DNA of 64,000 nucleotides, taken from assembly GCA_014706385.1 (NCBI GenBank), contig JACGZH010000001.1, positions 1,550,001 through 1,614,000 on the forward strand, read 5' to 3'. The notes below the pieces were generated by a model. It was not told the DNA's origin. It saw nothing but the letters and a program-made list of their open reading frames with translations, and made no database searches. The translations under genes were made by a program, and so were the position numbers. Below, one piece after another: positions 21,678 to 50,600 of this stretch. This DNA is from Phaffia rhodozyma (lineage: Eukaryota; Basidiomycota; Tremellomycetes; Cystofilobasidiales; Mrakiaceae). Position 1 is the stretch's first letter, and every line of letters starts with the position of its first letter.

Positions 21678-23338
21678 TTAGTTCATCTGCTTGATGAGAG
21701 CGTTGATGGCGTTCTCCCTGAGTCCCTCGTCACCGCCCTCGACGTAACCGGTGAACTTTCGAGCTCGCCATCCACCAGTAGGGGAAGAGAGCTTGAAGGG
21801 CCAGAGGAAGTTGGAAGCGGCCTTGAAGTTAGGTCCGGCAGTAGCGATCTCGTGAACAAGATCCTCGATGCAGATGATTCCCTTCTCTCCGAGAGACTTC
21901 TCAATGGTGGAGTTCTCCGAAAGGGGGATTCGCTGCTTCTGGACCTTACCGTATCCTCGCTTGTAGATAAGCGATCGGATGGCCGAGACGTTGGGCTCTC
22001 CGTAGGTAACGTAGGGCTCGACAAGCTTGAGCATCTGGGCGGTGGCCTTGGTGACCTTGACGAAGACGGCGTTGTTGATCTGCAGCAATCGGAGGAGCTG
22101 GAGGATCTTTCGGGGCTTGGGAGCGATCTCGTTGATACTGTAGTTTGAGTAACGATTAATAAAATACAGGACCAATGTCAATTTTGTCTTCCTTTTGACT
22201 GTATACAAGATCTAAACTGACCCTCGGATTCGGATCACAAAGTAGATCTTGGGCTGAGCAGGGACGTAGAAGTCACCGGAAGCTCGAGCCTCTCGTCGGA
22301 GTCGGATCTCCTCCTTCTCGGCGGTAGCGTACTCCTTAGTGTACTGCTCGGCTCGCTTGAAGATGACCTGTCGTTGAGCTCGCTTGGTCTAAGGAGAGAA
22401 AGTTCCGTAGATTATCCAAGTTCAACATCATTGACAAAGAAATTCGTTCACACACAAACGACCAAACAGAAAGACGATCTATGTCAGCCTCTGGGCCAGA
22501 TGGAAAAATCGCAAAGTCAAACGCAGATGTGTTCGAGAGAACGAGGACGGAGAGGAAGAAGAGCTTGTCGTAATTCAGTCCCGAAAGATGGTTAACTTGA
22601 GGACATCATCGTCGTGCAAGACTAGTCGTCAATTAGCGTCATGGATAGACGTATGCATCATTTAACAACAGAACACTCTTCCTCTTTCTAAGGAAACAGA
22701 TATGGAGAGTCGAGAAGGCCAAATTTGTCGGCGGGACAGGTGTGATGGAAAAGTGTTGACAACATTTGGGAGTATAGAACGAGACTTGGTTGCCCTTGAG
22801 AAAATGCCGGATGGAGGTGGACAAAGCGTACGGTGTTGAAAAAGGTAGAGTTGCAATCAAAACGTACCTTTCGGGCCTCAGCGGCAGCAGCAAGCTTCTC
22901 CTCTCGGGTCTTCTCAGCAGATCGCTGCTTCTTGAGAAGAGACTCGGGGACGGCAACTTGCTATAATATCAATAATCCGGTTCCGGGAGGAAAGAGAAGT
23001 CAGAACGGTGATATTCTTTCGGCATTCCAAAGAAAGAAAAGAAAGAGAAAAGAAAAAGCCCTTGTCGCATCTAGTCCTTCCCTCCTTTCTCAATACCAAC
23101 TTTCAAATTTCATCTCCTGAGTCTCTTTGAATCCAACTTTGCTACTGATTCTACTCCTAGATTATTCCCGCTTCTACGTCCCTTCTTTCAAGCCATCGAT
23201 TTATCGGGAGAAAAGTTATGGTCGAAGGGATAAGACGGAGGGAGGAAAGGGAGAAAGTGGGGCTGAAGAGTGAAGGAAAAATTGTAGCCTATGCCGCATA
23301 CTAACCTCGGCGGAGGGAACGGTGGTCTTGACAGCCAT
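21678..23338 (-). CDS. RPL7: 60S ribosomal protein L7 (uL30)
   Basis: Cytosolic large-subunit ribosomal protein. Four exons on the minus strand: 23338-23306 ([11 protein letters not shown]), 22960-22868 ([20 protein letters not shown]), 22388-22222 ([20 protein letters not shown], ending IYFVIRIRG) and 22137-21678. The last exon carries [25 protein letters not shown]-like [32 protein letters not shown] and the C-terminus [11 protein letters not shown]. Length and motifs match eukaryotic L7. Intron 2 (22867-22389, 479 nt) is far longer than the local average and contains a box C/D snoRNA. The start codon is only 323 bp from the stop of the upstream ubiquitin protease gene on the same strand, so the ribosomal-protein promoter is compressed into that gap. 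The C-rich codon choice differs from neighbours, as expected for a highly expressed gene. Confidence 0.97.
22565..22668 (-). ncRNA. Intronic box C/D snoRNA, snR39b-like, inside RPL7 intron 2
   Basis: On the minus strand a terminal stem TTGTTAA (22668-22662) pairs with TTACGACAA (22573-22565, GC bulge). It brackets a C box ATGATGC (22661-22655) and a D box CTGA (22578-22575); an internal C'-like ATGATGT is near 22611-22605. The 13 nt ACCATCTTTCGGG upstream of box D are an exact antisense match to the conserved 25S/28S rRNA element CCCGAAAGATGGT (recalled from yeast 25S near position 805). The fifth base upstream of box D pairs with the G of CCCG, predicting 2'-O-methylation equivalent to yeast Gm805, the snR39b target. 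Yeast RPL7A and RPL7B introns carry snR39 and snR59, which target the nearby A807, so the host gene also fits. The C box deviates at its last base. Confidence 0.85.
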
Positions 23339-47602: not shown

Positions 47603-50600
47603 ATGAAGGTCGAATTGGTCACACCCCCGTTCAGGGGTATCGTCGAGTAAGTCCGGCCGTGTCTGTCCGAAAACCCTCCATCTCTCTATCTTGCCCATCA
47701 TCTTTCTTTGCCCCCCCCCCCGTTCTTCGCTCGTTCAAATCAACCCGCATCTCACACATACATCCATTCTCTTCCCCCCCTAAAAAGAACCACACTCGAT
47801 GCTCTCGTCATCTTCCAGGCAGCCAAACAAGGCCTCATCCCGAGAGTAACCAGGCGACTGTCTGAGAAAGAACGAGGCATGATTCAATCCGGAGCCGTTT
47901 TTGTGAGTGCTCGTCGACCATCTCTCATTTCTGCCAGACCATGTTACTCAATCCGTATCTTTCTCTTTCTTCTTCCCTTTCTTTTTCTTTTACCTCCCAT
48001 CTTTGCTTCCCCCCCCCTCCAGGTCTTTGACGAAGGCGAAAGCGGGATGAAACGATGGACCGACGGCTTGGTCTGGTCTCCATCCCGGATCCTAAGCAAC
48101 TTCTTAGTCAGTCCAACATATATAGATAAACAGAAAACATCTCTTTCCAATCCATAGCTCTTTTTTCCTCTTCTTTTCTCTCCTTCTCTCTTCCAAAAGA
48201 ATACGTTTTTTTTTTAAAAAAAAAAAAAAAAAAGAAGAAGAAGAAGAAAAAGCTGCTGACCTCGTCCCCTTCACTCTATCCCCCCCCACAGGTCTACAGA
48301 GAGGTCGAGAAACGAACAGAAAAAGGCATGGCCGCGTTGACGTCCTACTCGGCAAACACCGTGGACGCCCAAGGAAACCAGATCCTTTCCTCCCGGATAG
48401 ATGACCCTAACGACTTTAGTCCGAACGAAGTCAGCCCAGATGATTCCAGACCGAGCACCGCCGGAGCAGACACCCACCAGCTTGGTCGCCACGACGGTCC
48501 CTCCGGCATGACCCGCTCGTTAGAACAGGCAAGAGAACGCCAGCTCGTCGGCTCTCTCACCGCCTCCGTCCGTTTCAAAGAGGGTGGTCTCGTAAAGAGA
48601 GTTCGTACTCGTTTCCTTGTCCTTGTCCTTTTTTTTCTTCTTCTTTCTCCTCCTCTCCTTCCTCCTTCGCACCACTTGGGCATGTCCCCGTTCCTCCGAC
48701 TCACTCTGCTCTCCTTTTGCGCTCTTCTCCGTTCTACCTTTACCTTTACCCCTACCCCTACCCCATCCTTCTTTCTCGCAAACACAACCTCCCCCCGCCC
48801 TCTCCCAGACAATGTCGGCCAGCATCAACGGGGTCGCCCAACACCTGGTATCATACTACACCCTCGAAGACGCAATGAACGGCCGGTTGCGCACACCTTC
48901 CAGTCTACCAGAGCTCGCCTCGCTCGAGATCAATCCAGAATACGTATGTCGATCGAATCTCCCGTTTGTCAGATGTTTCTTTCCTCCCTTGAAAAAAAGG
49001 ATTCACACCGTCGTCCCCACCATCTTCCGTGTTCCCTCTTTCCTTTCTCTTGACCGCCTTTCTTCCTTCCTTGGGTGTGCCCTCAAAAGCTCCGGGACAC
49101 GTTCTTCAGAGACCCTCCAAAGATCGAAGAGGATGCCTCCGGCGTGCTCAGGTATTGGTACGTCCTGTTCTTTATCTCTACTCCTGTGTCTTCCTATCTT
49201 GTCTGTGCTTATCAAGCTTGCTTCCAACTTGTCGGCCGCACCTCACCCGCCTATATTGTTCCCTTTCTCTTTTCCCCTCCTTTCTCTCTCTCTCTCTCTC
49301 TCTCTCCCTCCCCCCTCTCCCCCCTTCAACACAACACCACACCACCACAAAGGGGTGAACCAGAAAAACAACCGTTATCTCCTCCCCTCAGGCACACACC
49401 CCTACCAGCCGCCCTCCCCATGGTTTCATCCTCCTCGCCTTTCATCACCGGCTCGAGATCGAAACAAGACCAAAGATCGAGAGCAAAGTCGAAAACAAGA
49501 ACGATGACCATCCGCGCGTTGCCACCAAACCAACTGACGACCCAGAAGCAGTCCCAGAACCAGTACCACACAATCTCACCGGCAACACCTACAGAGCCGT
49601 TCTACCCGGCCGGCGCCGAAGCCCCGTTCATCATCTCACCCTCCCCGTATTTCCCGTCGTATCAAGCCCCGTACGATAAATCTCCACAATCACACCCACA
49701 CCCACACCCACACCCACACCCCATCCCCAACGGTTATCCCAGCGGAGAGCCACCAGGCAGCGCAGACTCCACCTCCGGCTCCTTCCCCATGGTCGACACC
49801 GGCTTCCCCACCTCGTCCACCAGCGCTGTACGACCTCTGCCGATCCAGCAGTCAGACGTCCATCAGACATACTCGGTAGCCGGCTCGGCAGGAGGCTCAG
49901 CACCACCAGTACCGCCAGGGGGAGAGATCCGTCGGTATTCGCACGCCCATGGAGTTCCCGGTTCTGACTATGGCTCCTGGGGCTCGTCCTCCAGAGCGTC
50001 CAGAAACTACCACCCGTACGGAAACCCAGCCCCGACAGCCACATCCGACTCGTTCCCCATATCCGGTACCAGTCTGGACTCCTATCGACCTGGCTCCCGG
50101 GCCAGGTATATGGCCACACACCTCCAGCCCGGGTCGTATGTCTCTCCGGAAACAAACACAAACACAAACACAAACTCAGACTCGATACCCATCCCGATGA
50201 GCGCCTCGGCTGCCGCGTTTACAAACCCTTCGTATCCTCATCCTGCTCCTCCCACTGCTCTTTCTGCTCCCGCTCTCCCTGCCCCTGCTCCTGCTCCTAC
50301 TTCTGCCCCTGCTCCTGGCTCCGCCCAAGCCTCTGCTTCTCTTACGCTAGCGTCGTCCTCCTCAGACGGATACCCCAATAATCGACCAAGCTCGTCTAGA
50401 CGTCCGTACCAGGACCAACCACCGTATGATTCCGAATCGTTAATCGTTTCTCCTCGGATTCAGGCCGGCGGCGCTCGTCAGACGTACGCGATCCCTCCAT
50501 CAGAAGGTAGATCCTCATACGCATCCGGTCTTTTGTCTTCTTCAGCTTCAGCTTCCTTGCCACCTCCCCCACCGCCCCAGCCACAACCGTTCTATCCGTT

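What the first reader, a model, noticed from the sequence alone, without database searches (positions are those of the whole stretch)
22565..22668. Box C/D snoRNA in RPL7 intron 2 aimed at the 25S rRNA G805 region
The intron of a ribosomal-protein gene contains C and D boxes, a closing stem and a 13-nt exact antisense to the CCCGAAAGATGGT element of large-subunit rRNA. The rule of five points to the G equivalent to yeast Gm805 (snR39b). Yeast RPL7 introns host snR39 and snR59, aimed two bases away. So host and target region appear kept between ascomycetes and this basidiomycete while the exact methylated base may have shifted.
Basis: partly seen in the sequence, partly recalled or inferred. 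Interest (0 to 1): 0.8.

Follow-up and report, generated by a model that had tools for sequence, protein, structure and literature searches.

The report
RPL7-intron snoRNA of Phaffia yeast
An intron of a ribosomal-protein gene in a red basidiomycete yeast carries a small guide RNA that probably directs a methyl mark onto ribosomal RNA; this gene-within-a-gene is already known across fungi, and here it occurs in three copies.

Summary
On the minus strand, intron 2 of RPL7 (uL30) carries a box C/D snoRNA: C box 22661-22655, C' 22609-22603, a 13-nt guide 22592-22580, D box 22578-22575. The fifth base before the D box (C at 22583) faces the G of a conserved LSU element, equivalent to yeast G805. 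The genome is Phaffia rhodozyma or very close. Three copies were found: identical bodies (87 of 87 nt) in intron 2 of both RPL7 paralogs, and a diverged copy on contig 12 outside RPL7; flanks show no substantial similarity, which bounds the RNA. Rfam snR39 (RF01197) matches end to end, but below its cut-off. The host-snoRNA link in ascomycetes and basidiomycetes is in print (Stajich 2007; Lim 2021). Neurospora CD47 is assigned to the same G, so a target shift in the basidiomycete is not supported; the odd one out is the A807 assignment of yeast snR39/snR59. New but modest: an RPL7 duplication, apparently on the Phaffia line, with the snoRNA in both copies, as in yeast; a third copy; and no convincing A807 guide in a limited search. 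rDNA was not found in the assembly, and no expression data were available.

The parts
21678..23338 (-). Host gene RPL7 (uL30), paralog A; exons 23338-23306, 22960-22868, 22388-22222, 22137-21678
   Evidence: Spliced translation of 250 aa; matches RPL7 of fungi
22389..22867 (-). Intron 2, phase 0, GTACGT...CTTAG, 479 nt
   Evidence: same position in the second RPL7 paralog
22566..22670 (-). Box C/D snoRNA with terminal stem TGTTGT (22670-22665) / ACGACA (22571-22566)
   Evidence: a different complementary stem in each of the three copies
22655..22661 (-). C box ATGATGC
   Evidence: sequence; identical in 3 of 3 copies
22629..22632 (-). putative D' box TTGA (ATGA in the contig 12 copy)
   Evidence: sequence; no D' target found (partial and recalled rRNA)
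22603..22609 (-). C' box ATGATGT
   Evidence: sequence; identical in 3 of 3 copies
22580..22592 (-). Guide ACCATCTTTCGGG, antisense to LSU element CCCGAAAGATGGT
22583..22583 (-). Fifth base before the D box (C), facing G equivalent to yeast 25S G805
   Evidence: rule of five applied to the sequence; numbering of the yeast element recalled
22575..22578 (-). D box CTGA
   Evidence: sequence; 3 of 3 copies

Best explanation
An intron-encoded box C/D snoRNA of the snR39 kind, in the same host gene as the RPL7-intron snoRNA of other fungi. It would be spliced out with RPL7 intron 2, freed by debranching and trimming to the C/D core, bound by Snu13/Nop56/Nop58/Nop1 (proteins recalled), and pair through 13 bases next to the D box with 25S rRNA to place a 2'-O-methyl on the G equivalent to yeast G805. 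Shown here: anatomy, intron position in both paralogs, three copies with essentially only the body kept, family resemblance. Inferred: expression, processing, protein binding, methylation.
For: Boxes and guide in the right order and spacing. Body 87 of 87 identical between the two RPL7 paralogs (a 90-nt BLASTN block at 100%), while their four-fold sites are identical at only 87 of 115 and no other BLASTN hit between the two introns has E below 0.29. Third copy 91% identical over 94 nt with C, C', D boxes and guide unchanged. Different complementary terminal stems in the three copies, each stronger than every combination of its own flank with another copy's. End-to-end Rfam snR39 match, E 0.0033 for 501 bases searched against all families; the three copies are the best three of four hits of that model in the genome (E 0.031, 0.033, 0.33). 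RPL7-intron snoRNA published for ascomycetes and basidiomycetes (passages); in Fusarium graminearum intronic SnR39 falls when the debranching enzyme is deleted (passage).
Against: No expression data. Rfam scores (29.2, 29.0, 24.9 bits) lie below the gathering score of 40; over the whole window E is 0.42; and the snR39 model rings below its cut-off in 8 of 14 control genomes at E up to 10. rDNA was not found in the assembly, so the target was not read in this organism. Last base of the C box off consensus. Each terminal stem alone is not rare: 6.6, 6.6 and 16% of random flank pairs have as long a helix and 12, 34 and 6% as low an energy. A forced global alignment of the two introns 2 has 335 of 459 aligned columns identical over 582 columns, body included, so some flank similarity cannot be excluded by that measure. 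Folding z-score 0.75. Orthologs of snR39/snR59 were not found in three Candida-clade yeasts (PMC5033589, passage), so the snoRNA is not universal.
Confidence: 0.9

Rival explanations
1. The same snoRNA, but its methylated base is the A two positions downstream (A807 equivalent), as annotated for yeast snR39/snR59.
For: Yeast snR39 and snR59, in the second introns of RPL7A/B, are listed for Am807. No convincing separate A807-register guide was found: 30 exact 11-mer sites and 31 near matches screened.
Against: The only D box at the guide puts the fifth base on C, opposite G; the spacing is the same in 3 of 3 copies. Neurospora CD47 is assigned to the G.
Confidence: 0.06
2. A chance 13-mer or a dead snoRNA relic in an intron, without function.
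For: Score below the Rfam cut-off; no expression data; one contig of the viral collection holds the 13-mer plus N plus CTGA (L004), so the word alone can arise elsewhere.
Against: Zero changes in 87 nt between paralogs where four-fold sites changed at 28 of 115 (about 3e-11 at that rate, worked out by hand from those counts); three copies with all boxes intact. L004 shows no C box in the 140 nt printed upstream of its word.
Confidence: 0.03
3. Not exclusive of the main reading: the identity of the two RPL7 copies reflects recent gene conversion or copying of the RNA rather than constraint.
For: The identity stops almost exactly at the ends of the RNA (90-nt block), as expected also for copying through an RNA.
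Against: Both introns sit at the same position of duplicated genes, so descent by gene duplication is simpler; boxes and guide are also kept in the more diverged contig 12 copy.
Confidence: 0.2

Closest known systems
snR39 family, Rfam RF01197 (snR39/snR59 in yeast RPL7A/RPL7B intron 2)
   Same: Host gene, second intron, C/D anatomy, guide sequence next to the D box, a GACUAG stretch shared by the Rfam consensus and the two RPL7 copies; two RPL7 paralogs each with a copy
   Different: Score below the cut-off; yeast snR39 and snR59 are annotated for A807 and described as divergent in sequence, whereas the two Phaffia bodies are identical
Neurospora crassa CD47
   Same: Intronic C/D RNA, D-box guide, G805-equivalent target (26S Gm785)
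   Different: Host gene not named in the passages read; 16-bp guide, 75 nt
snR39b / SNORD2 (RF01299), Gm805 guides
   Same: Same target base; the SNORD2 model matches the contig 12 and RPL7B copies over its whole length but below cut-off (21.1 and 25.4 bits, cut-off 37), the match running on downstream of the D box
   Different: Other hosts or gene types (EIF4A2 intron in chicken; class M rather than I in yeast)
Tetrahymena TtnuCD19 (RF02295)
   Same: Identical ACCAUCUUUCGGGACUGA guide plus D box and AUGAUGCAUA start
   Different: Other organism; weak overall match (25.9 bits, cut-off 70)

Membership tests
Box C/D snoRNA | C and D boxes near the ends, closed by a terminal stem | tested here: met
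   the C box deviates at its last base and the stem is short and not rare by itself
Box C/D snoRNA | 10 or more bases antisense to rRNA directly upstream of D or D' | tested here: met
   13 Watson-Crick pairs, one base before D; rRNA element recalled, not read in this genome
Box C/D snoRNA | Stable nucleolar RNA bound by Snu13, Nop56, Nop58, Nop1 | not testable with these tools
   no RNA or protein-binding data
snR39 family (RF01197) | Score at or above the Rfam gathering score of 40 | tested here: not met
   29.2, 24.9 and 29.0 bits, end-to-end alignments; so it is called snR39-like by host and guide, not a certified Rfam member
snR39 family (RF01197) | Location in the conserved RPL7 intron | tested here: met
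   intron 2 of both RPL7 paralogs; exact identity with the yeast intron position was not tested (recalled only); position kept in 82% of fungal species according to PMC8476143
Am807 guide (yeast snR39/snR59) | Fifth base before D or D' faces A807 | tested here: not met
   fifth base before D is C at 22583, facing G
Gm805 guide (snR39b, SNORD2, CD47 functional group) | Fifth base before D or D' faces G805 | tested here: met
   methylation itself not testable

The most novel reading that the evidence does not exclude
The RPL7-intron snoRNA of the fungal ancestor guided G805, as in Phaffia and probably Neurospora, and the yeast line re-aimed it by two bases to A807 while a separate gene (snR39b) kept G805; Phaffia has only the ancestral guide, in three loci, and may lack Am807 altogether.
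Probability: 0.25. Interest if true: 0.4.

Novelty: new member of a known kind. Interest (0 to 1): 0.25.

Why it matters
It adds a clean basidiomycete case to a known and old host-snoRNA link and corrects the direction of the proposed target change. RPL7 was duplicated, apparently on the Phaffia line, and both copies carry the snoRNA, as in yeast, which makes dosage of this guide testable in a second yeast. The rest is ordinary.

Tried and rejected
Rfam at gathering score found nothing in the window or in L001, L003, L004.

Hunt for an A807-register guide: the 11-mer search gave 31 places, 30 with sequence; 27 of the 30 lack the anatomy. A relaxed pattern with up to 2 mismatches gave 31 places; 20 came as loci and 11 were fetched, so 31 of 31 were screened, in 33 rows because two places appear in two loci. 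Four rows (L044, L046, L047, L057) have a C-box-like word upstream. Three of them lack a proper D box (CCGA, TAGA, CTGT); L046 has TTGA but two guide mismatches. I judged none convincing, but they are not excluded: my stem measure gave them 2-3 pairs and gave the three true copies only 3, 2 and 2, so it does not discriminate.

C2:1859749, the fourth hit of the snR39 model (E 8.3), was fetched (L011) but taken as chance and not studied. D' target: the 27 nt from the C box onward are identical in all three copies, yet outside the guide no antisense run stood out against partial yeast rRNA (best score 8.5; best scores of 60 shuffles of the first 69 nt ran from 9 to 15); the 5' parts of 18S and 25S were not covered. 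The LSU element as a 30-base pattern was found neither in the viral nor in the genome contigs.

Literature: no paper in the library holds both 'Phaffia rhodozyma' and 'snoRNA' (the synonym Xanthophyllomyces was not searched). 'RPL7 intron' with snoRNA and fungi gave 0 papers. Canzler et al. 2018 (fungal snoRNAome) is not held, so whether it lists Phaffia is unknown. A conserved structure in the yeast RPL7B intron, found in most Saccharomycetaceae, is mentioned in PMC8216456 (passage); I did not look for it here. Of the papers cited I saw passages, plus the outline with abstract of PMC2780460 and one short methods section of PMC8476143; supplements were not open to me.

Full report
Setting. The window lies in a 19.77 Mb, 15-contig genome. 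The second RPL7 gene of that genome encodes a protein identical (250 of 250) to the NCBI RPL7 of Phaffia rhodozyma, which is also the best hit of the window's own RPL7, at 225 of 250. The organism is therefore Phaffia rhodozyma or very close, a tremellomycete yeast.

Anatomy. RPL7 runs on the minus strand with four coding exons. Intron 2 (22867-22389) holds, in sense orientation, C box ATGATGC, a possible D' box TTGA, C' box ATGATGT, the guide ACCATCTTTCGGG, one A, and D box CTGA. The C box starts 206 nt after the 5' splice site and the D box ends 186 nt before the 3' splice site. By the rule of five, C at 22583 faces the G of CCCGAAAGATGGT. I assign that G to yeast G805 from recalled numbering of the yeast sequence; papers list Gm805 for snR39b and Am807 for snR39/snR59 (passages). 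The guide-target duplex is predicted at -27.2 kcal/mol (target element recalled).

More than chance. The 13-mer followed by one base and CTGA is expected 0.002 times in this genome and was found three times, each in a copy of one RNA. The copies are at C1:1572573-1572665 (the window), C1:564839-564934 and C12:204430-204524; they are the best three of four hits of the Rfam snR39 model in the genome (E 0.031, 0.033, 0.33, then 8.3). The same model gives hits at E up to 10, none over its cut-off, in 8 of 14 control genomes, so its score alone proves little.

The copies. The C1:564839 copy lies in intron 2 of a second RPL7 gene at the same phase-0 position. A protein search with P0001 found pieces of these two RPL7 loci and no others (6 matches). 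Coding sequences are identical at 672 of 753 bases and at 87 of 115 four-fold sites, whereas the snoRNA bodies are identical at 87 of 87. BLASTN between the introns gives one 90-nt block at 100% and otherwise only matches of 11 to 22 nt with E of 0.29 or more; a forced global alignment has 335 of 459 aligned columns identical over 582 columns, body included. In a tree of 16 rows (the two genes and 14 chosen from the 120 listed proteins) they group together at 100/99, apart from Mrakia. This suggests a duplication on the Phaffia line, though only one Mrakia row was used and gene loss elsewhere was not tested. Yeast has the same arrangement, on my reading by a separate duplication. The contig 12 copy is 91% identical over 94 nt, differs mostly between D' and C', and keeps C, C', D boxes and guide. 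The 10 kb around it show no RPL7 similarity (tblastn best E 1.4). A lone GTGAGT within 300 nt upstream, 66 nt before the C box, with CTGAC and TGTAG downstream, would fit an intron of a non-coding host, but this is only a lead. The terminal stems of the three copies use different bases (TGTTGT/ACGACA, TTTTTG/CAAAAA, and 5 pairs in the third). In 6 of 6 cross-combinations the pairing is weaker than either parent's own stem, although two of them (-5.4, -4.4) are stronger than the weakest native stem (-4.1); each stem alone is not rare among random flanks.

Family. Rfam snR39 aligns end to end at 29.2 bits (E 0.0033 for 501 bases; E 0.42 for the whole window), under its gathering score of 40. TtnuCD19 and SNORD96 and, for the other copies, SNORD2 also match below their cut-offs; the alignments printed share above all the guide plus CUGA. 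I therefore call it snR39-like by host, intron and guide, and not a certified member of the Rfam family.

What was known. Stajich et al. [quoted passage not shown] Lim et al. 2021 (PMC8476143, abstract and passages) report the RPL7 intron position in 82% of fungal species, and the legend of their figure 7 says that the RPL7B introns of eight intron-poor species encode box C/D snoRNAs; four of these (Ustilago, Malassezia, Pseudozyma, Meira) are basidiomycetes by general knowledge. Palumbo et al. (PMC5295604, passages) describe snR39 and snR59 in the second introns of yeast RPL7A/B, guiding A807. Liu et al. 2009 (PMC2780460, passages) assign intronic CD47 to Gm785 in the snR39b row; a text search of that paper for Am787 found nothing. 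They also say that snR39 was one of four Rfam-annotated Neurospora C/D RNAs, so CD47 is probably that one (my inference). Its row carries the marks N and R for expression but also an asterisk, which the footnote explains as annotated but not detected by experiment, so its detection is unclear. Against universal conservation, snR39 and snR59 were not found in three Candida-clade yeasts (PMC5033589, passage). Together with the printed snR39 consensus (UCGGGG-CUGA) this makes the G805 register the usual one among what I saw.

A807. No convincing C/D site in the A807 register turned up among 30 exact 11-mer places (of 31) or 31 near matches. Four of the near matches have a C-box-like word upstream and are weak but not excluded (see Tried and rejected). 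A guide with a poorer match, or one in a gap of the assembly, would have been missed.

Limits. No RNA data. rDNA not found by three patterns, either missing or withheld from the assembly, and the LSU family search did not complete. No other basidiomycete DNA was compared here. The 27-nt stretch from the C box onward, identical in all three copies, has no assigned target.

Noticed in passing
L009:5600-3692 (G000:C1:565600-563692, minus): Second RPL7 paralog with the identical snoRNA in intron 2; its protein equals the NCBI Phaffia RPL7 (P0001), while no exact match to the window's RPL7 stood among the 120 proteins listed (best 90%).
   Followed up: yes
L010:4523-4437 (G000:C12:204523-204437, minus): Third, diverged snoRNA copy outside RPL7; upstream ACCCTAA, CAGTCACG and CACGTGA words (resemblance to yeast Homol-type boxes is recalled) and a possible host intron.
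   Followed up: partly
L009, plus strand from about 6856: An eL8-like gene (Pfam PF01248) lies head to head with RPL7B, which may mean a shared promoter region.
   Followed up: no
window:22635-22661: The 27 nt from the C box onward are identical in all three copies but have no identified target.
   Followed up: partly
window:43858-44088 and 48137-48274: MicroRNA-precursor models score below cut-off; the first place is an AAG/CTT simple repeat pair, the second shows no inverted repeat of 20 nt or more; the family names are probably chance.
   Followed up: partly
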